Assembly: GCA_016177875.1 (NCBI GenBank)
Contig: JACOUL010000042.1
Coordinates: 1-64,000 of the forward strand
Direction of reading: 5' to 3'
Length of the DNA stretch: 64,000 nucleotides
Origin: Burkholderiales bacterium
GTDB lineage: Bacteria; Pseudomonadota; Gammaproteobacteria; Burkholderiales; Burkholderiaceae_D
A model generated the notes under the pieces. It had not been told where the DNA came from and searched no databases. It worked only from the letters and a program-made list of their open reading frames with translations. Shown one piece after another: positions 6,428 to 29,147 of this stretch. Position 1 is the first letter of the stretch, and every line of letters begins with the position of its first letter. The position numbers and the translations under genes were made by a program.

Positions 6428-7696
6428 TTGACTTACCTTATCGACCGACGTCTGCAAGGCAAGAACAAATCTGCAATCAACCGTGAACGCTTCATCCGGC
6501 GCTACAAGGGGCAGATCAAGGATGCTGTTACCCGCGCCGTCAAAGGCCGATCGATTACCGATATCGAAAACGGCGAAAAAATTTCTATTCCCGTTAAGGA
6601 CATCAACGAGCCCAACTTCGGCCATGCTAACGGCGGTGTTCGGGAAACCATTCATCCGGGCAACAAGGATTACATGAAGGGTGACCAGGTCCAACGCCCC
6701 AAAGGGGGTGGTGGCGGGTCGGGCAAAGGCAAGGCCGGCAACAGCGAAGAAACTTCCGAAGACGATTTCATCTTTGAACTGACCCGCGAGGAATTCCTGA
6801 ATGTCTTTTTTGAAGACCTGGAATTGCCGAACATGGTCAAGACGCAGTTGACCGCCACCAAGGAATACCGCAATCAGCGCGCCGGCTACAATATTTCCGG
6901 CACCCCTTCCAACATTCATGTCTTGCGTTCGCTGCGCGGTGCGCTTGGGCGCCGCATTGCCGTTGGCGGCAAACCGCGCAAGCGTTTGAAGGAAGCCGAG
7001 CAAGAGCTGCTCGCGCTTTTATTGGTTGCGGATGAAAAAGATTCGCGCGTGATCGCGCTACGTAAGGAAATCCACCATTTGCGTTCCCGCATCCTGGCGA
7101 TTCCCTTCATCGATCCGTTCGACCTGCGCTACAGCAATCGCATCAAAGTACCCAAGCCTTCCAGCCAGTGCGTAATGTTTTGCATCATGGACGTATCAGG
7201 CTCGATGGATGAAGAAAAGAAAGACGCCGCCAAACGCTTCTTCATCCTGCTCTACCTGTTCCTGGAGCGGGCTTATGAAAAGGTCGACGTGGTTTTCATC
7301 CGCCATCACACCTCGGCGACCGAAGTGGATGAAGAAGAATTTTTCCATTCGCGCGAATCGGGCGGCACGGTGGTGTCTTCCGCGCTGAATTTGTTGACCA
7401 AGATCCTGCACGAGCGCTATCCGTCTTCCGATTGGAACGCCTACGTGGCGCAAGCTTCCGACGGCGACAACTGGGATAGCGATTCAGTGACTTGCCGCGA
7501 ATTGCTGGTCAATACCATCATGCCGGCGGTACAGTATTACGCCTACGTCGAGATCACCGATGGCCCGGCACAGAACTTGTGGGAAGAATATACGCAGATT
7601 CCCGAAGTGCATCCGCACTTTGCCATGCAAAAGATTGAATCACCGGCTGACATTTATCCTGTATTCCGAGAATTGTTTAAGAAACAACCGAAATGA
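6428..7696 (+). CDS. yeaH: YeaH/YhbH family protein (DUF444)
   Basis: 422 residues starting at TTG, with AGCAGGAG just upstream. N-terminal positively charged segment with YLIDRRLQGKNKSAINRERFIRRYK, a glycine/lysine-rich linker (about 95-110), and a C-terminal von Willebrand A-like part with the MIDAS-type motif DVSGSMDEEKKD at about 254. This family accompanies PrkA and SpoVR in nearly all proteobacteria that have them; its biochemical role is not settled. Its stop overlaps the spoVR start. Confidence 0.93.
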   Translation: MTYLIDRRLQGKNKSAINRERFIRRYKGQIKDAVTRAVKGRSITDIENGEKISIPVKDINEPNFGHANGGVRETIHPGNKDYMKGDQVQRPKGGGGGSGKGKAGNSEETSEDDFIFELTREEFLNVFFEDLELPNMVKTQLTATKEYRNQRAGYNISGTPSNIHVLRSLRGALGRRIAVGGKPRKRLKEAEQELLALLLVADEKDSRVIALRKEIHHLRSRILAIPFIDPFDLRYSNRIKVPKPSSQCVMFCIMDVSGSMDEEKKDAAKRFFILLYLFLERAYEKVDVVFIRHHTSATEVDEEEFFHSRESGGTVVSSALNLLTKILHERYPSSDWNAYVAQASDGDNWDSDSVTCRELLVNTIMPAVQYYAYVEITDGPAQNLWEEYTQIPEVHPHFAMQKIESPADIYPVFRELFKKQPK

Positions 7697-17616: not shown

Positions 17617-17721
17617 CCTTCATAAATATTTCAAATAAACATTCTTGATCTTTCTCAACCTTCTTTAGGAGCAGATGGGAAACAATTGATTCCACAACGA
17701 AATCTCGAGGAGGGAGATGAC

Positions 17722-17949
17722 ATGCTCGCGATCACGACGCAAGACGTAATTGAAGAAATGACGAATGCATTTTTGGGGACTGATGCAACCAGTCGTCAAA
17801 AATATTTATTTGAACAGTCTTTGCATAATCTGGTCCGCATCGCCCAGGCAGAACAAAAAATAGAAATCAAGGCAAGCGTGAAGAAACTTACCGGCGCCGA
17901 CTTGGCGGATACCGAATTATGCATGCCGAAAGTTATGCCGAGAAATTAG
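17722..17949 (+). CDS. Hypothetical protein (75 residues)
   Basis: Start ATG 17722 is chosen because GAGGAGGGAGATGAC immediately precedes it; an upstream start at 17686 has none. MLAITTQDVIEEMTNAFLG begins a mostly helical, cytoplasmic protein with SLHNLVRIAQAEQKIEIKASVKKLTG in the middle. No family recognised. Its end overlaps the next gene by 31 bases, so the two are probably coupled. It is divergent from the sigma-54 operon. Confidence 0.6.
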   Translation: MLAITTQDVIEEMTNAFLGTDATSRQKYLFEQSLHNLVRIAQAEQKIEIKASVKKLTGADLADTELCMPKVMPRN

Positions 17950-19440: not shown

Positions 19441-19483
19441 GGAAAATAAGAGCCTTTGATTACGCTGGCTTATTTTGATTTCC

Positions 19484-19581
19484 TGGTGGAAGGTGTGAGA
19501 TTCGCCTACATTCTACAGGCCGCGGTTCGGCTTGCATGCCGCCCCCTTCGAATCTCACCCGCACGCATGCGTGCTTCTTCC
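19484..19581 (-). pseudogene. Decayed tRNA-Ser-like sequence with attachment-type 3' end
   Basis: On the minus strand it begins GGAAG and ends CGAATCTCACACCTTCC-ACCA, matching the T-arm and acceptor of the intact tRNA-Ser at 29058-29147 with one change in the last 21 bases. The inner part (D-arm, anticodon arm) is not recognisable. The following 40 bases (19441-19480) resemble the terminator-containing flank beyond the intact tRNA. Either a degenerate tandem tRNA or the scar of an earlier integration. Confidence 0.5.
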
Positions 19582-19615: not shown

Positions 19616-19631
19616 CTGGCGGAAGGTGTGA
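19616..19631. repeat. attL core of the genomic island
   Basis: CTGGCGGAAGGTGTGA is identical to the 3' end of tRNA-Ser at 29057-29072 and lies about 130 bases before the integrase gene. The pair defines a 9.4-kb island. Confidence 0.75.
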
Positions 19632-19752
19632 CCGCCAAAATTAGTCTCAAGCTGTATCACCTTGTCTCACTATCAAAAACCTCTCATAGGTAAATTCATA
19701 TTTGACGTATCATCTTGCCTCATGTTGTTTTATGCCAGCCCCACACAAAAGA

Positions 19753-19770
19753 GGGGCTAAATGTGGGGCT
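19753..19770. repeat. Island terminal repeat, left copy
   Basis: GGGGCTAAATGTGGGGCT, itself two GGGGCT units 12 bases apart. The identical 18 bases recur in the same orientation at 28986-29003 near attR. Probable arm-type binding sites for the integrase. Confidence 0.6.
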
Positions 19771-19775
19771 CAAAT

Positions 19776-21062
19776 ATGTCATTCATCACCGCAACTCAAG
19801 CCAACGCAATTAAGCCCAATAGCAAGCCAATCGCGCATGGAGTGAAGGGTTTATACCTCCATCCCACAACAAGTAAAGGGCATGGGAAATGGATATTGCG
19901 ATTTACCAGCCCCACAACCAGCAAACGCCGAGACATGGGACTTGGCTCTTACCCGGAAATTTCAATTGCTGACGCTGGTACGTTGGGCCGCAATGCTCGT
20001 GCACTAATCGAGGTTGGCAAAGACCCCATTGAGGAACGTAATAGCGAGCGTGAACATAAACGCCTTGCCTTGGCAATTGCCACCTGGACATTTGAGAAGG
20101 CAGCTCGTCAAGTACACACCGAATTGAAACCTAGCTGGAAAAACAAAAAGCACTCTGCTCAATGGATTAGCACTCTTGAAACCTATGTTTTCCCCACTCT
20201 GGGCACCAAACAATTAGACACCATCACTCCCAAAGATGTCGCTGAGGTATTGCGCCCAATTTGGCTTGAAAAGGCCGAAACTGCGAGTCGAACGAAACAA
20301 CGCATCCATGCCGTTATGGCGTGGGCATGGGCTCACGGCTACGTTTCGGGCAATCCAGTTGATGTCATTGACAGAATTCTTCCCAAACAGCCGGAAAAAC
20401 GAGCAAGAACAGAACATCAACCTGCCATGCCTTGGGCAATTATTCCGGCATTTTTTAAGGAAGTTCTGCGTGAACGTCCAAAATCTGATTCAACAAAGTC
20501 CTTATTAGAATTCCTAATTTTGACGGCATCTCGCTCAGGCGAGGTTCGCGGCATGCAATGGAACGAAATCGATTTTGTGGAAAAGATCTGGACTATTCCA
20601 GCCAATCGAATGAAAGCCAAAAGAACGCATAGGGTTCCTCTTTCTGATCGGGCTATTGAAATATTGGAAAAACAAAGAAAAGACTTAAAATTGGATTCAG
20701 AGTCACGCAATCAAGATAAACCACTTTCCGGCCTTGTCTTCCCCTCCCCGCGCAGACTCATGCTGTCCGACATGTGCATTACCGCGTTGCTTCGCCGAGC
20801 AAAAGCCGAAAGCAGTACGCCGGAGCGCACTGCAACTGCTCATGGGTTTAGATCATCTTTTAGAGATTGGGCGAGTGAACATGGTTACTCGCACGACTTA
20901 GCCGAACGCGCACTTGCACATAGCGTAAAAAATCTAGTTGAAGCGGCCTATCATCGGACAGATCTTCTAGAGCAGCGTCGTCCAATGATGCAAGCATGGG
21001 CAGATTACTTACACAGCATAGCGGCCATAAAAAATAAATTAGTGAGGCTCAAGGCTGCTTAA
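19776..21062 (+). CDS. Tyrosine recombinase (P4-type integrase)
   Basis: 428 residues from ATG 19776 (MSFITATQANAIKPNSKPI). N-terminal arm-binding domain of the P4 integrase type (DUF4102), with GLYLHPTTSKGHGKWILRF and MGLGSYPEISIADA, then a SAM-like core-binding part and the catalytic domain. The catalytic set is present: Arg in TASRSGEVRGMQW (about 250), HGFRSSFRDW (about 355), His in LAHSV and the nucleophile Tyr in EAAYHRTD (about 390). It lies next to attL and is transcribed into the island, the usual place for tRNA-targeting integrases. It looks intact. Confidence 0.95.
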   Translation: MSFITATQANAIKPNSKPIAHGVKGLYLHPTTSKGHGKWILRFTSPTTSKRRDMGLGSYPEISIADAGTLGRNARALIEVGKDPIEERNSEREHKRLALAIATWTFEKAARQVHTELKPSWKNKKHSAQWISTLETYVFPTLGTKQLDTITPKDVAEVLRPIWLEKAETASRTKQRIHAVMAWAWAHGYVSGNPVDVIDRILPKQPEKRARTEHQPAMPWAIIPAFFKEVLRERPKSDSTKSLLEFLILTASRSGEVRGMQWNEIDFVEKIWTIPANRMKAKRTHRVPLSDRAIEILEKQRKDLKLDSESRNQDKPLSGLVFPSPRRLMLSDMCITALLRRAKAESSTPERTATAHGFRSSFRDWASEHGYSHDLAERALAHSVKNLVEAAYHRTDLLEQRRPMMQAWADYLHSIAAIKNKLVRLKAA

Positions 21063-21149: not shown

Positions 21150-22733
21150 ATGGCCAAGAACAGGGATAACTTTTCACCTAAAATAACCAAGGAGCTAGAA
21201 CGTCGAGTCAATGGCCGATGCTCCAATCCGACTCACCGAGTACCTACGTCGGGTCCAAGTTCGAAAGTTGAAAGCTCTAATAGTATCGGCATTGCTGCGC
21301 ACATTACTGCCGCGTCGCCTGGCGGCCCCCGCTATGACGCAAGTCTAACGCAGGAAGAACGAAAGCATATAAATAATGCCATTTGGCTTTGCTCCAATTG
21401 TGCAACGCTGATAGATAAAGATCCAAAAACGTATCCAGTCGAGCTTTTGCAACAATGGAAAAAATCTGCGGAACTGGAAGCGCAAGAAGAAATGGGCCAG
21501 ATACCCGTATCTAGAAAAACCCATGAGCAACTACAAGCCCTAGTATTTGGAGATCTACCCTTCAAACGTGCTCCCGACGCGGTTTCGAATATATGTCATT
21601 TAGTGGCATCGAAATACAAAGAGCTAGATCCAAGATTTGATGTCGAAATTGGCTATCAGGATGGCAAAACCATATGCACCTTTTCAGCGACGGAGCCAGT
21701 ATCCTTTGCCGCCAATATTGCAAACGAATTTGCTTTAGAGTTTCGAGAAAAATTTAACGATCTAATTAGTCATGGAAAAGATCTTGAGATTGACGCCAAA
21801 GCCATTACTTTGACTGGCTCAAAATTATTTGAATTAACCAATAACCAGGCCACAAAGTTTGTACTTAGCACGAATCTTCGGAAAAATGCTGTAACTAAAA
21901 TTGAAGTGCTAGATGACGAAGGAATTTTAGAATTTTCCCTTGATGATGTTTTAGGAGAGCTAGTCGGAGGAAAGAAATCTGTCACATTTTCAGGTTCGAC
22001 TTATCAAGGTTTAATCGCCATTGAATTTACCTACGAATTTGGAGAGTCCAGTTCTGAAAATTGCACGATTTCGACCGAAATTGATTTCTCCAGTTGGAAT
22101 ACGAAGACTCTTTTAACGCTTCCGTATTTTGAAAAAATTTATAAATACTATGATGCGCTTTTTCATGGAAAATCCATCGGGCTAAGACTAGAAATTGATG
22201 GCGAAAAAGTCATTTCCGGCAATGGAGCAGATTTTGCGGATGAGGATCATGTCGGACGAGTGTATTCACTACTTCGATATATCCGAAATGTGCGAGCCAT
22301 TTTGAAGTTTATCGGAACGGATGTTCCCTACGCTGAGAATATCCGCCTCTCCCTTAACGATGTAGAGGATGTAGAGTATTTTTATAATCTTCTAATAGAA
22401 CATAAACAAATGCGTGGTGAACAACTTGGCACTGTTAGCTTTACGGTGATTCCGCATATTGGTGAAGTTGTGCAAAGCTCAATCATGTCTTTAATGTCGG
22501 GCGAAGCTAACGCAATCCGAATAGAACAATCATTTGGCCAACCTCTGAATCTATACGGAACTAAGATTACGCTTCCGAGAATCGCAATTTCTTACTCCCG
22601 GATGCGCGCACAAGATCCGATCAACCTTACTCAGGTCATTCCAGGCGAAGCAATATCAATGAAACTTATTCCCCTGGAAGACTGCGCTATGCACGTTGAA
22701 TTGCACAAGTCTGCAACTCCAGTGAATGCTTAG
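21150..22733 (+). CDS. HNH nuclease-domain protein with large unknown C-terminal region
   Basis: 527 residues. An HNH/treble-clef domain (about 10-110): zinc ligands Cys24, His29, Cys81 and Cys84 (WLCSNC), catalytic-type His51 in GIAAHI, Asn at 75-76, and the tail IDKDPKTYPVELLQQWK. This domain type occurs at the N-terminus of several bacterial defence-like proteins. Residues 130-527 have no motif I know; they alternate strands and helices and are rich in acidic and aromatic residues, as expected of a sensor or binding module. No signal peptide or membrane segment. It lies between the integrase and a second nuclease gene. Defence is inferred, not shown. Confidence 0.7.
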   Translation: MAKNRDNFSPKITKELERRVNGRCSNPTHRVPTSGPSSKVESSNSIGIAAHITAASPGGPRYDASLTQEERKHINNAIWLCSNCATLIDKDPKTYPVELLQQWKKSAELEAQEEMGQIPVSRKTHEQLQALVFGDLPFKRAPDAVSNICHLVASKYKELDPRFDVEIGYQDGKTICTFSATEPVSFAANIANEFALEFREKFNDLISHGKDLEIDAKAITLTGSKLFELTNNQATKFVLSTNLRKNAVTKIEVLDDEGILEFSLDDVLGELVGGKKSVTFSGSTYQGLIAIEFTYEFGESSSENCTISTEIDFSSWNTKTLLTLPYFEKIYKYYDALFHGKSIGLRLEIDGEKVISGNGADFADEDHVGRVYSLLRYIRNVRAILKFIGTDVPYAENIRLSLNDVEDVEYFYNLLIEHKQMRGEQLGTVSFTVIPHIGEVVQSSIMSLMSGEANAIRIEQSFGQPLNLYGTKITLPRIAISYSRMRAQDPINLTQVIPGEAISMKLIPLEDCAMHVELHKSATPVNA

Positions 22734-22865
22734 TAATCTTACTTAGTTGAAGTTTGCTGGGCGCAAAGCAAACCGCTAATACCTTAGCTCTAAAGGCTGC
22801 ATAACATATCCCCTTAATCTCAACGCTTTGCCGATTTGATCCGCTTCGGCAGTCGAAAAAAATCA

Positions 22866-23771
22866 ATGGCCATTCAAAAGCATAGTTACGACGGCATCTT
22901 AGAAAGTTACGAAGCTACATTACGTTGGCTTGATACGCTTGGAGTAAAAATCGAGCCTGGACGTACAAAGCACTACCGTGAGGTACTCGAATATTGGACG
23001 GAAAACTACCGGAGCGCGACAAAATGGGATGCACAAAAAATTTTCCCGGATTTTGTTAGCGCCATATTCGAGGTAATGGCATTTATCGAAATTTATGAGT
23101 CTTTTAAGGATGTTCCGATAAAAGATTTAGCAGGTATTACTACCAAATTGAATAAGGGAGTTTCCGGCCCATTGAATTCAGCCGATGAGAACGCAAACAC
23201 TAGCAACGCAAGAAATTTTATCTTCGAAGCGTTAGTTGCCGCGAAATGCCATCGTCCGCTTAAGAACGTATTTGCGATTCTCGATGCCGAGTCCGACACG
23301 GGGTTTACTCTACAGGATAAGAAAATTTGGGTTGAATGCAAAAGAGTGACTTCGCCCAAAAAATTAGAAGCAAATATTCGCAAAGCTTGCAATCAACTTG
23401 AGATTGTATTGGCGCGAAATTTTGGAAGCGACGATAGAGGCATGGTTGCGATTGACGTCTCTAAACTCATCAATCCTAAGGATGAGCTGTATGTACAAAT
23501 AACGGATCACGAGTTGATACGTTCGATTGGAATCATGATGGACAACTTCATTCGAGATAATTTTCGGGTGTGGGAAAAAGTTTATTCTACAAAGAGTAAA
23601 AAAATACTCGGACTCATTCTTCGCTTTTCATTTATGGCGACATCCGAGAAAAGCAACCTCATAGTCCACGTAGCGGAATGGGCGGTAAACCCGAGACTAG
23701 GGCTTGCCGATTCGGAGCAGACTTTCCTTCAACGACTTGTCGAAATCATTGGCAGTCAGGAGCAAACGTAA
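22866..23771 (+). CDS. PD-(D/E)xK nuclease-fold protein of unknown specificity
   Basis: 301 residues from ATG 22866 (MAIQKHSYDGILESYEATLR); a TTG at 22836 would add ten residues. After a helical N-terminal half (1-100) comes a classical nuclease core: Glu121 in NFIFEALVAAK, Asp144 in ESDTGF, then IWVECKR with Glu157 and Lys159, followed by a helix with a Gln (IRKACNQLEI). The C-terminal part is mixed alpha/beta. The motif order E-D-ExK suggests a metal-dependent DNA or RNA nuclease. It follows the HNH gene by 132 bases with a small inverted repeat between, so joint expression is possible but not certain. Confidence 0.65.
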   Translation: MAIQKHSYDGILESYEATLRWLDTLGVKIEPGRTKHYREVLEYWTENYRSATKWDAQKIFPDFVSAIFEVMAFIEIYESFKDVPIKDLAGITTKLNKGVSGPLNSADENANTSNARNFIFEALVAAKCHRPLKNVFAILDAESDTGFTLQDKKIWVECKRVTSPKKLEANIRKACNQLEIVLARNFGSDDRGMVAIDVSKLINPKDELYVQITDHELIRSIGIMMDNFIRDNFRVWEKVYSTKSKKILGLILRFSFMATSEKSNLIVHVAEWAVNPRLGLADSEQTFLQRLVEIIGSQEQT

Positions 23772-24001: not shown

Positions 24002-24340
24002 ATGACTACGCTATTTAAACTCTACAGCGGCAACAATTCACTTCCTCCCGCGAAGGAGCGCTTGCAAGACCAGATAAATAACTCCGCTCGTCAGCAAATA
24101 AAGCGCTTCATTGACGCAACAAAGTTGTTCGCCTCTACTTTACTCGTGCATTTAACAGGAGGTAATCGCATAGCTGCTCGGCAGCCTAAAAGCACACGTT
24201 CCGCAAGACGGGCACATCGCAAACCTGCTTCGGGCGACAGCGACTCTGACCCTGCTCCTTCACGTACGCTCAACTGCCTATACCTTTCCCCTCTCCTACC
24301 TAGAAGTATTGCCGCCGCCCTTAAAGGAGGTGCGCAATGA
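24002..24340 (+). CDS. Small basic hypothetical protein upstream of alpA
   Basis: 112 residues from ATG 24002, preceded by TTAGGAAAAAT; a longer frame to 23855 lacks a ribosome binding site. MTTLFKLYSGNNSLPPAKERL opens a helical part (RQQIKRFIDATKLFASTLLVHLTGG), then a basic Ser/Arg/Pro-rich tail. The stop overlaps the next start (ATGA) and the coding end carries the next gene's perfect AAAGGAGGTG. I recall similar proteins before AlpA/primase genes in Burkholderiales elements, role unknown. Confidence 0.6.
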   Translation: MTTLFKLYSGNNSLPPAKERLQDQINNSARQQIKRFIDATKLFASTLLVHLTGGNRIAARQPKSTRSARRAHRKPASGDSDSDPAPSRTLNCLYLSPLLPRSIAAALKGGAQ

Positions 24341-24537
24341 ATCCCGTCAGAATTTTAAAAATAAAAGACGTAGTTGCAATCGTCGGCTACTCCCGTTCTT
24401 CAATATATAGACTTGTAAAAATTTGCCAATTCCCACCGCCGGTAAGATTGGGAGCCCACGCAATTGGCTGGCGGTCTGACAGCATTCAGTCGTGGATCGA
24501 TTCTCGTCCTTATAGAAATGAGGCGGGCGAAAAATGA
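24337..24537 (+). CDS. AlpA family transcriptional regulator
   Basis: 66 residues with a MerR/excisionase-like winged helix: ILKIKDVVAIVGYSRSSIYRLVK, then FPPPVRLGAHAIGWRSDSIQSWIDSR. AlpA-type proteins activate excision or replication genes in P4-like elements. Overlap with the upstream stop (ATGA), a strong Shine-Dalgarno, and overlap with the downstream start (ATGA) make it the middle of a tightly coupled operon. Confidence 0.92.
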   Translation: MNPVRILKIKDVVAIVGYSRSSIYRLVKICQFPPPVRLGAHAIGWRSDSIQSWIDSRPYRNEAGEK

Positions 24538-26567
24538 AAAGCACCTACTATGATTCAGGATCAACGAATTACGCATTTCCTCATACCCTTTCTAATGAAT
24601 TTATTTTCTGGACGGTTAAAAATCGGTTCGACAATACACCGAAACCGAACAAGACAACTTGGAGAGAATTCTGCTCAAGTTTGAGACATGTTGAACGGCA
24701 TGAAAAAGATGGGCCGGGTTTCATATTTAACGAATTGGACGGCAAGGGACGCAAAAAAGAGAATGTTCTTTCTATTACTGCCATTGCCCTAGACATCGAG
24801 CGGCAAGACACATCGCCGCCCCCAGCGGAGGAATTTGCAGACCATTTAAAAGCGGCGGGGTGTGTTTCGCTGCTCTATACGACTTTCAGCCATTTGCCTG
24901 AAGCTGCCCGATATCGGCTTATATTTCCTATTGATAGGCCAATAAAGCCCTGTGCATTAGAAAAAGCCACACATTGGGTCATGAATCGTCTTGCGCTATC
25001 CGGTTGTACTGATCCTGCATCTTGGCAGCCTGCTCGACTGATGTATGCGCCTGCCTGCCCACCAAAGTCGCCTTCTCTAGTCGCCTTCAATATAGAGGGC
25101 GAAATGCTATCCGCAGACTTTTTGGAATCGCTCGACAACACAACAATTCCAGCGCCAGAACGTCGCCAATTTGGCGACTCTCCACAAGTGGAATATGCCG
25201 GTGAACAAAATGGTACTCCCTACGGTCTTGCCGCGTTGGACTCTGAATGCCAAATTGTTCTAACTGCTCCCCCAAAGCAGAGTAACAACACACTCAACAA
25301 CGCGGCAATAAAAATGGGGAGCCTCGTCGCTACCGGACAAATTGAAGAGAACTACGCAAGGAATCGTTTATATGAAGCCGCTATGCGAAGGAAACCCGGA
25401 TGCCATGACGAAGTTACGGCAACAATTAATAGTGGATTTAATGAAGGATTAAAAAGCCCTCGACGCTCCCAGCAATCCAACAGTGCCAAATTCTCAAATT
25501 TAGAATTTCCACTTCGCACTCCGCCAAAATCAAAAATTGCGAAGACAAACATCGAAGTTCAATTGCGACGTGGTGCGGATATTAAGCCGCTACCGATACA
25601 TTGGCTTTGGCGTGGATGGATCGCGTGTGGAAAACTCTCACTGCTTGCTGGTAATGCGGGAACGGGTAAGACGACGCTAGCTCTAGCAATTGCGTCAGTT
25701 ATAACCAGGGGAGGGCTATTCCCTGATGGCAGCCCTTGCGAACGCGCTGGAAATGTATTGATATGGTCGGGAGAGGATGTAGCAGATGACACTCTCGTAC
25801 CTCGTCTAATAGCATCTGGTGCAGATATGCACCGATGCTTTTTCATCGAGGGCGTTAATAAGAATGGTGAAAGCATTCCATTCGATCCAGCCATGCACAT
25901 TGCGACACTTCATGACGTGTGCGTAAAGATTGGGGGTGCATCACTAATGATTGTTGATCCTATTGTAAGTGCGGTGTCCGGAGACATGTATCGCCCCAAT
26001 GATGTAAGGCGCAGCCTACAAGCAATAGTGGACTTTGCGGAGATTCACCAGTGCGCGGTTATTGGAATCACCCATTTTACGAAAGGAAGTGCAGGCGCGT
26101 CCCCACTCGATAGAATTCTAGGTTCACAGGCTTTTGTTGGATTGGCCCGCTTGGCATTAGTAGCAGCGAAAGAAGAAAGCGGCTCTAGGCGCATATTAGC
26201 TCGCGCCAAATCAAACATTGGAAAAGACATGGGAGGCATAGCCTATTCGCTGAACACAACTTATATAGCGCCTGAAATTGAAGTGAGTCATGTCGTATGG
26301 GGGGAAGCAATTGAGGGATCAGCCCGAGAAATCCTAAACGATGTAGAAAACGTTATTGGCGAGGATGAGTTTAAGCGTGATGCCGCCAAAGATTTTCTTC
26401 GAAATAAGTTACGCAATGGCGCAATTCAAGTAAATCAATTGAAAAATGAAGCAGGAGAAGCAAATCTTAAGTGGCGAACTGTTGAGCGCGCCAAATCAGA
26501 TTTGGGTGTTAAAGCTAATAAGGCTGGGCTTGATGGTGGATGGTTTTGGACTCTACCGGCCCCTTGA
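24534..26567 (+). CDS. Primase-helicase-like replication protein (RecA-type ATPase)
   Basis: 677 residues. The N-terminal part (about 1-200) has ALDIERQ (Asp87/Glu89), TTFSH (119-120) and YRLIFPID, the spacing seen in archaeo-eukaryotic primase-like domains; this is tentative. The C-terminal part (about 345-590) is a RepA/RecA-type ATPase with Walker A GNAGTGKTT (about 371-379), Walker B LMIVDPI and ITHFTKG. It probably starts replication of the excised island. Coupled to alpA by ATGA. No catalytic loss is visible in the ATPase. Confidence 0.82.
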   Translation: MKSTYYDSGSTNYAFPHTLSNEFIFWTVKNRFDNTPKPNKTTWREFCSSLRHVERHEKDGPGFIFNELDGKGRKKENVLSITAIALDIERQDTSPPPAEEFADHLKAAGCVSLLYTTFSHLPEAARYRLIFPIDRPIKPCALEKATHWVMNRLALSGCTDPASWQPARLMYAPACPPKSPSLVAFNIEGEMLSADFLESLDNTTIPAPERRQFGDSPQVEYAGEQNGTPYGLAALDSECQIVLTAPPKQSNNTLNNAAIKMGSLVATGQIEENYARNRLYEAAMRRKPGCHDEVTATINSGFNEGLKSPRRSQQSNSAKFSNLEFPLRTPPKSKIAKTNIEVQLRRGADIKPLPIHWLWRGWIACGKLSLLAGNAGTGKTTLALAIASVITRGGLFPDGSPCERAGNVLIWSGEDVADDTLVPRLIASGADMHRCFFIEGVNKNGESIPFDPAMHIATLHDVCVKIGGASLMIVDPIVSAVSGDMYRPNDVRRSLQAIVDFAEIHQCAVIGITHFTKGSAGASPLDRILGSQAFVGLARLALVAAKEESGSRRILARAKSNIGKDMGGIAYSLNTTYIAPEIEVSHVVWGEAIEGSAREILNDVENVIGEDEFKRDAAKDFLRNKLRNGAIQVNQLKNEAGEANLKWRTVERAKSDLGVKANKAGLDGGWFWTLPAP

Positions 26568-27762: not shown

Positions 27763-28047
27763 TTAAAAATTGTCGGGGATGCTAGGCGCTTGCTTCAATA
27801 CGCCGTTTTCAATCGGCAAGGCCAATGATTGGTGCATGCCGGTCATGCCGTTAACGTGTACCCATACCAGCAGCTTTGTACTAGGCCCGCTTGTGCGAAC
27901 GCTGTAAGGCGTGCCCATGAGCGTCAAAACTTCTTTTTCCGTCATGCCAGCTTTAAGCTGCCGGGCACCGTTCCAATCAATCTTTCCAGAACCGGCACAA
28001 GCAGAAAGAACAACGGCGGCTAGGACTGCTATAAATTTCGATTTCAT
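27763..28047 (-). CDS. SmpA/BamE-like small lipoprotein
   Basis: 94 residues from ATG 28047, which has AAAGGGAGTGG upstream. Signal peptide with lipobox LSAC (cleavage before Cys17), then GSGKIDWNGARQLKAGMTEKEVLTLMGTP, the pattern of SmpA/OmlA-fold lipoproteins, where the KAGMTEKEV helix precedes the LGTP-type turn. Probably exported and acylated. In a mobile element such a lipoprotein could alter the envelope or phage adsorption, but housekeeping envelope roles are equally likely. Confidence 0.75.
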   Translation of the reverse strand: MKSKFIAVLAAVVLSACAGSGKIDWNGARQLKAGMTEKEVLTLMGTPYSVRTSGPSTKLLVWVHVNGMTGMHQSLALPIENGVLKQAPSIPDNF

Positions 28048-28120
28048 TTTCCACTCCCTTTCTATGGTCAACGCTGATTATTCGCATGAATTTGCAATGG
28101 AATTTGGCTCAATACGCCAC

Positions 28121-28612
28121 TTAAGCTTCAGCCTTTATTGCTAATTCACTGCCACAGTGCTTGCACTTAATCGCTTCCACCAAGATTTCTTCGGCACAGA
28201 ATGGACATTTTTTTGTTCGCGCCAACTTGGATGCTGCGGCTTTCCGTTGCTCCTCAGCTTCTTCTTCCTGCAATTCTTTTACTCGACTGTATTCATATTC
28301 TTTTTGTGCCAAAAGCTCTGCCGTCTTATCCCGACTAAGCGCCCAAACGAGAGCGATCACCCAAGGTATAAGCAACCAACCAAGGATAAAATTAAGGGCA
28401 AAAATTGCAGCCGCATTTGTATGCTCCCTTTGGAACGCTTGTATCGACGGGGCAAAATAGAACGCTCCACCGATGACGATAACAAAAAAAAGCATAAAAG
28501 CGCCTGCCGGTGTCGATCCGACACTGAGCAAAAAGGCCAATCCTCCGACAACCGCCAAGAAAATAAGCAAATTTTTTGTTTGTGATTTCAATTGTTTTTC
28601 CTTCGTTGCCAA
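28121..28612 (-). CDS. Superinfection-immunity-like membrane protein with zinc ribbon
   Basis: 163 residues. Two or three membrane helices in the first 85 residues, with AIFALNFILGWLLIPWVIALVWAL matching the core of the superinfection immunity family (phage T4 Imm-like). A charged helix follows, and the C-terminus is a zinc ribbon: CPFC and CKHC. Imm proteins block DNA entry of incoming phage. The gene is divergent from the XRE gene over a 52-base spacer with palindromes. The family call is fairly good, the antiviral role an inference. Confidence 0.75.
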   Translation of the reverse strand: MATKEKQLKSQTKNLLIFLAVVGGLAFLLSVGSTPAGAFMLFFVIVIGGAFYFAPSIQAFQREHTNAAAIFALNFILGWLLIPWVIALVWALSRDKTAELLAQKEYEYSRVKELQEEEAEEQRKAAASKLARTKKCPFCAEEILVEAIKCKHCGSELAIKAEA

Positions 28613-28664: not shown

Positions 28665-28907
28665 GTGCCAAACCTCTCCAAAAATCGCCAATCCCCAGCG
28701 CTACTTGCGATAGGAAACGCTATACGTCGTGCAAGGACGGCGCACAACCTATCGCAGGAAGAACTTTCCTTACGGGCTGAAGTTGACCTAAGTTATGTAG
28801 GCAGAATTGAACGTGGGGATAATAACGTTACGCTCTTGACCCTTATAAAGCTGGCAAATGCGCTTGACCTAACTTTGACTGAATTGATGGCTGAAGCGGA
28901 ACTTTAA
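28665..28907 (+). CDS. XRE-family repressor-like protein
   Basis: 80 residues starting at GTG 28665. Almost the whole protein is a helix-turn-helix domain: LLAIGNAIRRARTAHNLSQEEL, then LRAEVDLSYVGRIERGDNNVTLLTLIKLANALDL. No C-terminal peptidase or oligomerisation domain. Probably a small dimeric repressor acting on the adjoining palindromes and on the Imm-like gene. It is the last island gene before attR. Confidence 0.88.
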   Translation: MPNLSKNRQSPALLAIGNAIRRARTAHNLSQEELSLRAEVDLSYVGRIERGDNNVTLLTLIKLANALDLTLTELMAEAEL

Positions 28908-28985
28908 TCGCTAGTGGATTCAGGGAATTGGAAAACGCCGATATATTGGTTTATGGCGTTGTTTAGGCCAGCAAACACGGAATGT

Positions 28986-29003
28986 GGGGCTAAATGTGGG
29001 GCT
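28986..29003. repeat. Island terminal repeat, right copy
   Basis: The same 18 bases as at 19753-19770 (GGGGCTAAATGTGGGGCT), 54 bases inside attR. Confidence 0.6.
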
Positions 29004-29056: not shown

Positions 29057-29072
29057 CTGGCGGAAGGTGTGA
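29057..29072. repeat. attR core within tRNA-Ser
   Basis: CTGGCGGAAGGTGTGA, identical to attL. Fifteen of the 16 bases are the tRNA acceptor stem and CCA end, so integration restores the tRNA. Confidence 0.75.
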
Positions 29073-29147
29073 GATTCGAACTCACGGAGGACTTTCGTCC
29101 TCGCCGGTTTTCAAGACCGGTGCATTCAACCGCTCTGCCAACCTTCC
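29058..29147 (-). tRNA. tRNA-Ser(UGA)
   Basis: 90 bases ending in encoded CCA. Acceptor GGAAGGT / ACCTTCC, anticodon stem CCGGT / ACCGG around loop CTTGAAA (anticodon TGA), a long variable arm GAGGAC-GAAA-GTCCTC as expected of serine tRNAs, and T-arm GTGAG-TTCGAAT-CTCAC. Complete. It is the integration site of the island. Confidence 0.97.

What the first reader, a model, noticed from the sequence alone, without database searches (positions are those of the whole stretch)
21150..23771. Two-nuclease cargo beside a satellite integrase: candidate undescribed defence module
Seen: the integrase is followed by a 527-residue protein with an HNH/treble-clef N-terminus (Cys24, His29, His51, Asn75/76, Cys81, Cys84) and about 400 residues I cannot assign, then a 301-residue PD-(D/E)xK protein (Glu121, Asp144, Glu157-x-Lys159). 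Known: P4-like satellites carry variable antiviral systems near the integrase, and HNH domains are often fused to sensor domains in such systems (for example HNH-SAVED in CBASS). Inferred: the unknown C-terminal region senses infection and one or both nucleases act as effector. The 132-base gap leaves room for two independent genes.
Basis: partly seen in the sequence, partly recalled or inferred. Interest (0 to 1): 0.78.

Follow-up and report, generated by a model that had tools for sequence, protein, structure and literature searches.

The report
Two stand-alone nuclease-type island genes
A small mobile DNA island in a bacterium carries two probable virus-defence genes side by side; each turns up without the other elsewhere, and the larger one joins an unusual DNA-cutting-type domain to a well-folded part for which no relative was found.

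Summary
In detail: an HNH-type protein (21150-22733, 527 aa) and a PD-(D/E)xK protein (22866-23771, 301 aa) follow the integrase of a tRNA-Ser island. (1) The HNH region (1-117) is the Cap5/CBASS-type fold (VIA Z 15.3), but its last HNH histidine is Ala85; Ala, Ser or Gly stands there in 77 of 80 related loci. His51 and Asp89 are kept. (2) Residues 127-527 form a confidently predicted domain (pLDDT 86) with no significant Pfam or NCBIfam match and no detected structural relative. 32 further full-length members were aligned. (3) The pair recurs in Acidovorax benzenivorans but is not obligate: a PD-ExK relative is in 1 of 33 other HNH-bearing genomes, the HNH C-terminal domain in 0 of 9 other PD-ExK-bearing genomes. 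One transposon type carries HNH alone, PD-ExK alone, or both. Best reading: two independent, stackable, defence-type cargo genes, a single-gene HNH-plus-sensor nuclease and a separate PD-ExK nuclease. Defence is inferred from domains and neighbours; no phage phenotype was tested.

The parts
19483..19504 (.). left att-like repeat (CTGGTGGAAGGTGTGAGATTCG), copy of the tRNA-Ser 3' end with one mismatch
   Evidence: direct repeats D3/D4, sequence
29057..29078 (.). right att-like repeat at the tRNA-Ser 3' end
29058..29147 (-). tRNA-Ser (anticodon TGA), likely integration site
   Evidence: ARAGORN
19748..19770 (.). direct repeat near the left end, possible integrase arm site (inference)
   Evidence: D7, 91% to 28981-29003
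28981..29003 (.). direct repeat near the right end, possible integrase arm site (inference)
   Evidence: D7
19761..21062 (+). tyrosine integrase
   Evidence: Pfam PF00589, PF22022, PF13356
21150..22733 (+). HNH-type protein, 527 aa
21150..21500 (+). Cap5-type HNH domain (residues 1-117): His51 21300-21302, Asn76 21375-21377, Ala85 21402-21404 in place of the last HNH His
   Evidence: PADLOC, VIA Z 15.3 to 8fmf_C over 7-117, residue counts, PDB alignments
21528..22730 (+). C-terminal domain (residues 127-527), unrecognised; invariant Asp160, Arg162, Gly209, Trp316
   Evidence: conservation; model pLDDT 85.8, pTM 0.75; no clear relative
22734..22865 (+). 132-base gap between the two genes; no terminator- or sigma70-like site by consensus scan, no unusual RNA fold
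22866..23771 (+). PD-(D/E)xK-type protein, 301 aa: Glu121 23226-23228, Asp144 23295-23297, Glu157 23334-23336, Lys159 23340-23342
24337..24537 (+). AlpA-family regulator
   Evidence: PF05930, 5.1e-16
24534..26567 (+). AAA_25 protein, probably for replication (inference)
   Evidence: PF13481, 5.4e-29

Best explanation
The island carries two independent defence-type cargo genes stacked behind the integrase. Gene 1 is a self-contained, single-gene nuclease: an N-terminal Cap5-type HNH domain with a variant active site (His51, Asn76, Asp89; Ala at the last HNH position) joined to a roughly 400-residue C-terminal domain of an unrecognised family. Proposed mechanism (inferred): the C-terminal domain recognises a trigger of infection or a feature of foreign DNA, and this re-arranges or multimerises the HNH domains so that they cut DNA, as cyclic-dinucleotide binding by SAVED does in Cap5. 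Gene 2 is a separate PD-(D/E)xK nuclease of a rare family that also lives in mobile elements among defence genes, probably acting alone. Shown: domain identities, conservation, purifying selection, mobility, presence of defence-type neighbours, separability of the two genes. Inferred: DNA cleavage, trigger sensing, antiviral outcome.
For: Cap5 HNH fold and sequence. His51 and Asp89, which the search pattern did not demand, are invariant in 33 full-length sequences and in 45 proteins with other C-termini, hard to explain if catalysis were lost. PD-ExK residues invariant. Separability: PD-ExK profile in 1 of 33 other HNH-bearing genomes; HNH C-terminal profile in 0 of 9 other PD-ExK-bearing genomes (controls 4 of 4, all rows of the profile). 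One transposon backbone (tnpS/tnpT-like genes) carries HNH alone (L048, L046), PD-ExK alone (L107) or both (L039), and the shared DNA ends at or near gene borders. The two paired HNH proteins are not sisters: two gains, or one gain and several losses. In Methylovulum L026 the HNH gene lies alone between a tyrA-like and an aroA-like gene (gene names by eye). dN/dS 0.125-0.228 for five HNH pairs, 0.082 for one PD-ExK pair. Neighbours: single hits to PD-T7-5, PD-T7-1, ThsB, AbiLi and PDC models beside HNH genes, a caspase, a TIR-WD40 and an AAA_21 protein (chosen by eye); Abi_alpha, OLD-TOPRIM, TIR, ABC-3C and YhcG near PD-ExK genes (chosen by eye; 8 of 10 had a hit).
Against: No phage phenotype is known here for either gene. 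The last HNH His is absent in 77 of 80 loci, so DNA cleavage is not assured. No random-gene control was made: the outermost genes of the same loci also match defence models (IetA, TmtA, PycTM), so enrichment right beside the HNH gene is not shown. Some members sit beside non-defence genes (metal resistance L006; housekeeping L026). The pair formed in the same order in two places, which could hint at cooperation. The PD-ExK fold was not predicted.
Confidence: 0.6

Rival explanations
1. One two-component defence module: the HNH protein (sensor plus nuclease) and the PD-ExK nuclease act together.
For: Same order, same strand and adjacent in the window (132-base gap) and in Acidovorax benzenivorans L039 (83-base gap). 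The PD-ExK family is otherwise rare: besides the window's own genome, 1 of 299, 4 of 320 and 1 of 348 genomes, so adjacency by plain chance looks unlikely (judgement; no calculation was run).
Against: 32 of 33 other HNH-bearing genomes have no PD-ExK match; 0 of 9 other PD-ExK-bearing genomes have the HNH C-terminal domain. The same transposon type carries either gene alone. The paired HNH proteins are not sisters, and the window's PD-ExK is closer to unpaired L016/L017 (48/47%) than to paired L039 (42%).
Confidence: 0.12
2. The HNH-like domain is a pseudo-nuclease: a zinc-stabilised DNA-binding or DNA-sensing module, and the C-terminal domain is the effector or relay. (This can be true together with the two genes being independent, so the odds overlap with the best explanation.)
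For: Ala/Ser/Gly at the last HNH position in 77 of 80 loci, His in four of five solved relatives aligned. The module is fused to many unrelated C-termini: of 45 such proteins two have NACHT, two TPR, one an ABC-3C C-terminal domain by Pfam, and some have apparent transmembrane segments (L057, L068, L090; by eye). PADLOC's SduA model, a PD-ExK nuclease family, aligns to it at model positions 36-111.
Against: His51 and Asp89 are invariant in 33 full-length and 45 other sequences; a loose text pattern found His in 76 of the 77 loci it matched. One solved relative (8ysq) has Gly at the last position, so the His may not be needed in every member.
Confidence: 0.25
3. Ordinary island cargo without defence function (for example DNA repair, or regulation of the island itself).
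For: Uncharacterised C-terminal domain; some members next to non-defence genes.
Against: Cap5-type HNH domain; defence-type neighbours in several loci; patchy spread on plasmids, transposons and islands.
Confidence: 0.15

Closest known systems
CBASS effector Cap5 (HNH-SAVED), e.g. PDB 8fmf, 7rwk, 7rwm
   Same: N-terminal HNH domain: VIA Z 15.3, 2.8 A over 108 residues; profile match to the PDB sequences
   Different: C-terminal domain not recognised as SAVED; no CD-NTase among the island ORFs scanned; last HNH His replaced by Ala
PADLOC candidate PDC-M68A
   Same: strongest PADLOC hit, 5.3e-25, over residues 7-117; 33 of 33 full-length sequences hit it
   Different: only positions 4-114 of the 253-position model align
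Shedu SduA (DUF4263)
   Same: PADLOC SduA model positions 36-111 align to residues 31-106
   Different: the rest of the 326-position model is not matched; the PD-ExK protein has no PADLOC hit
PHROG 29098 (unknown function)
   Same: matches residues 3-398, 7e-54: a viral-protein family of the same architecture
   Different: no function assigned
P4-like satellite cargo (Rousset et al. 2022, PMC9122126; passages seen)
   Same: integrase, AlpA, a probable replication protein, variable cargo
   Different: no P4 helper-interference gene recognised among the 12 island ORFs scanned; HNH is not mentioned in that paper's main text

Membership tests
CBASS Cap5 | N-terminal HNH domain of the Cap5 fold | tested here: met
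CBASS Cap5 | C-terminal SAVED domain | tested here: inconclusive
   PADLOC SAVED_HNH models align only within residues 7-113; C-terminal model has no clear relative
CBASS Cap5 | neighbouring CD-NTase (cyclase) gene | tested here: not met
   no cyclase among the 12 island ORFs scanned with Pfam (9, 3 more) or the 7 scanned with PADLOC; the rest of the genome was not searched for one
HNH endonuclease | His-Asn-His/Asn catalytic set | tested here: not met
   His51 and Asn76 present, last position Ala85; Asp89 present
PD-(D/E)xK nuclease | conserved Glu...Asp...(D/E)xK residues | tested here: met
   E121, D144, E157-C-K159 invariant
PD-(D/E)xK nuclease | restriction-endonuclease-like fold | not tested
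PDC-M68 (PADLOC candidate) | full-length M68A match | tested here: not met
   only 4-114 of 253 model positions aligned
Shedu | DUF4263 nuclease domain | tested here: not met
   SduA model aligned at positions 36-111 of 326 only; no DUF4263 hit in Pfam for either protein
P4-like satellite | integrase, AlpA, replication protein | tested here: met
   (replication role of the AAA_25 protein is inferred)
P4-like satellite | helper-interference genes (psu, sid, delta; names recalled) | tested here: inconclusive
   none recognised among the 12 island ORFs scanned with Pfam; several small ORFs have no match

The most novel reading that the evidence does not exclude
A very broad group of bacterial conflict proteins shares an HNH-derived domain that has lost the last HNH His but kept His51, Asn76 and Asp89, and works either as a nuclease with an unrecognised metal site or as a DNA-recognition module plugged onto many different sensors and effectors. 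The window's protein is a single-gene member with an undescribed C-terminal sensor fold.
Probability: 0.3. Interest if true: 0.65.

Novelty: new variant of a known kind. Interest (0 to 1): 0.47.

Why it matters
If right, it adds a widespread single-gene nuclease-plus-sensor family, without a significant Pfam or NCBIfam match in the window's member and known to PHROGs only as unknown function, to the list of anti-phage candidates. It also gives a natural experiment (one transposon type with either gene or both) showing that two adjacent nuclease-type genes in a mobile element need not form one system. The missing His raises a directly testable question about catalysis in a large HNH group.

Tried and rejected
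Viral contigs: P0001 and the PD-ExK alignment A5 found no relative. Phage records: P0002 none; P0001 matched five records, mainly over the HNH region. Plasmids: 273 records matched P0001 but only 3 over at least 80% of it; P0002 matched 2. No constant partner of the HNH gene: among 37 loci clustered, apart from the HNH family itself, three Acidovorax transposon gene families recur in 4 loci each and two further families in 3 loci each, one of them again Acidovorax-type only. Considered and rejected: Cap5 proper, Shedu, PDC-M68, a strict two-gene system.

Fold search of the C-terminal domain: Foldseek found nothing at E <= 0.001; best VIA Z 3.8 (4.5 A, 81 residues, a beta-mannosidase). This means no relative found, not a new fold. 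The viral library with the whole model gave none at E <= 0.001. Weak sequence hits not believed: Smoa_sbd, E 0.021, residues 425-470; among the 33 full-length sequences one each to HNH_2, Cas12f1-like_TNB and YbcO in Pfam and one to AbiGii, E 0.00031, in PADLOC, places not shown.

Neighbour control: the outermost genes of the same loci (60 proteins) also match defence models, as do the nearest (61 proteins); both lists show only the first 25 families (of 36 and 40) and do not name the protein. No random-genome control was run.

Rows dropped before counts: L080 (131 aa) from A9; L025 (truncated) from A8; L034 (near-copy of L033) and L051 (316 aa) from A6 and from the neighbour sets. L030 and the G380 locus (L015) appear to be the same contig, and L043 and L006 are the same plasmid record.

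Full report
Observation. The ORFs, gap and residues are as described. The integrase (19761-21062) has arm, central and catalytic domains. The element ends at a tRNA-Ser (29058-29147): a 22-nt repeat of its 3' end (one mismatch) lies at 19483-19504, and a 23-nt repeat pair (19748-19770, 28981-29003) sits near both ends. AlpA and an AAA_25 protein follow the cargo. Four related-genome stretches were examined: in G1212 the left-flank ORF (17686-17949 in the window; 42% over 59 aa) lies about 360 bp from hemW with no island between, in G1213 about 6 kb away, and in G1214 and G1216 no match to it was found in the stretch held.

HNH protein, N-terminus. PADLOC gives PDC-M68A (5.3e-25), CBASS endonuclease effectors, SAVED_HNH and SduA, all within the first 133 residues. 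The AlphaFold2 model (33 sequences, mean pLDDT 83.2, pTM 0.62) matches Cap5 over 7-117 with Z 15.3, 2.8 A, 108 residues. Profile alignments to five distinct Cap5-like PDB sequences show His at the last HNH position in 9om4, 7rwm, 8fm1 and 7rwk, Gly in 8ysq. In this family the position is Ala 41, Ser 35, Gly 1, His 3 of 80 loci. These 80 are the best of 285 confirmed relatives from one genome scan, ranked by likeness to a query that has Ala, so some bias is possible. The scan's pattern demanded the Asn76, Trp79, Cys81 and Cys84 positions, so their invariance in these loci is built in; His51, Cys24 and Asp89 were not demanded and are invariant in 33 full-length sequences and in 45 others with other C-termini. 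Four plasmid homologues found by tblastn, without the pattern, keep all of them. A loose text pattern matched 77 loci and read His in 76. Catalysis is therefore plausible but unproven. Which Cap5 residues bind the metal is not named in the section I read (PMC8568899 section 9).

HNH protein, C-terminus. No significant Pfam or NCBIfam hit for the window protein; PHROG 29098, unknown function, covers residues 3-398. In 32 aligned C-terminal domains Asp160, Arg162, Gly209 and Trp316 are invariant. Its own model is confident (pLDDT 85.8, pTM 0.75). Foldseek: none at E <= 0.001; best VIA Z 3.8. Aligned members come from Pseudomonadota, Thermodesulfobacteriota, Campylobacterota and Cyanobacteriota; some lie on plasmids or on transposons. 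In the window's class 1 of 320 other genomes has it. In Methylovulum (L026) the gene lies alone between a tyrA-like and an aroA-like gene (names by eye).

The HNH-like module occurs with many other C-termini: of 273 plasmid records that match P0001 only 3 match over at least 80% of it. Among 45 proteins with other C-termini Pfam finds two with NACHT, two with TPR and one with ABC-3C CTD10. PDC-M68A is hit by 33 of 33 full-length and 45 of 45 other sequences; one of the 45 also hits PDC-S50 (1.5e-34).

PD-ExK protein. No significant hit in Pfam, PADLOC or NCBIfam and no PDB relative by profile, but E121, D144 and E157-C-K159-R160 are invariant in three sequences, two of them at 29 and 23% identity to the window's. 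It is rare: besides the window's own genome, 1 of 299 (single sequence), 4 of 320 (profile A3), 1 of 348 (profile A5) genomes; besides L039's genome, 3 of 249 in its family. These sets overlap in part. Ten neighbours chosen by eye were scanned and 8 had a hit: Abi_alpha (L107), an OLD-type AAA-TOPRIM and a TIR protein (L108), a TIR, a DUF3584 and a DUF7281 protein (L016), ABC-3C-type and YhcG proteins (L020). The fold itself was not predicted.

Are they one system? In L039 (Acidovorax benzenivorans) a PD-ExK gene (42% identical to the window's) follows an HNH gene by 83 bases. Among 33 other genomes bearing the HNH family only that one has a PD-ExK match, and of 9 other PD-ExK genomes none has the HNH C-terminal domain (the profile found 4 of 4 control genomes, all of them rows of the profile). 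L039 shares two backbone genes and the HNH gene with L048 (87% DNA, ending at the HNH stop) and L046 (79%, ending two bases before it), whose genomes have no PD-ExK match; it shares the two backbone genes (79%) and a PD-ExK unit (83.5%, 6597-7578) with L107, whose genome has no HNH C-terminal match. I call the backbone genes tnpS and tnpT and the element Tn3-like by eye and from memory, helped by the L004 annotation (site-specific integrase, DNA-binding protein). On the HNH tree the two paired proteins are not sisters, which means two gains, or one gain and several losses. I read this as separable cargo stacked twice.

Selection. dN/dS is 0.228, 0.136, 0.135, 0.160 and 0.125 for five HNH pairs (the last with dS 2.2, near saturation) and 0.082 for PD-ExK L039/L107; four other pairs are saturated at synonymous sites. 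Both genes look maintained as proteins.

Defence context of HNH genes. Nearest neighbours (61 proteins from 32 loci) include single hits to PD-T7-5, PDC-S39, PDC-S60, PD-T7-1, ThsB, AbiLi and PDC-S31. The outermost genes (60) include IetA, TmtA, PycTM/2TM effector and MkoC. Four neighbours chosen by eye are a caspase, a TIR-WD40, an AAA_21 ATPase and a TniQ protein. Without a random control this is supportive, not statistical.

Literature. Eight searches ran. In the listings (titles and starts of abstracts) I saw no description of an HNH protein with this C-terminal domain; the library holds open-licence papers only, so absence from print is not claimed. Passages were seen of PMC9122126, PMC8568899 (and section 9 in full), PMC12839542 (which reports auxiliary HNH and PD-(D/E)XK nucleases near BREX loci), PMC12137116 and PMC12804361; the rest as listings.

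Verdict. A real and correctly described locus; probably two independent defence-type genes rather than one two-nuclease system. The larger is a new variant of the HNH-plus-sensor kind.

Noticed in passing
28121-28612 (-): 163-aa protein with a Superinfection immunity domain (PF14373, 5.4e-14) and a weak zinc-ribbon match near the island's right end: a possible further anti-phage gene.
   Followed up: no
28665-28907 (+) and 27763-28071 (-): Small HTH regulator (HTH_3) and a small BamE-like protein (just under the Pfam cut-off) in the island.
   Followed up: no
19616-19631: A third, 16-nt copy of the att-like repeat about 130 bases inside the left end, perhaps a trace of an earlier insertion.
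   Followed up: no
L039 and L048, HNH gene: First 112 codons nearly identical (dS 0.038) while the rest differ (dS 0.548): recombination close to the domain border, as if C-terminal domains were exchanged.
   Followed up: partly
L022:3236-4672: A TniQ protein lies next to the HNH gene, suggesting carriage by a Tn7-like element.
   Followed up: no
L107:4765-5514: An Abi_alpha protein lies next to the PD-ExK gene on the Acidovorax-type transposon.
   Followed up: partly
L086 and L096: Proteins of 1506 and 1466 aa with the HNH-like module before an apparent NACHT-type ATPase region (assignment to these two loci by eye).
   Followed up: partly
L018 (G444): PD-ExK relative lying in two pieces.
   Followed up: no
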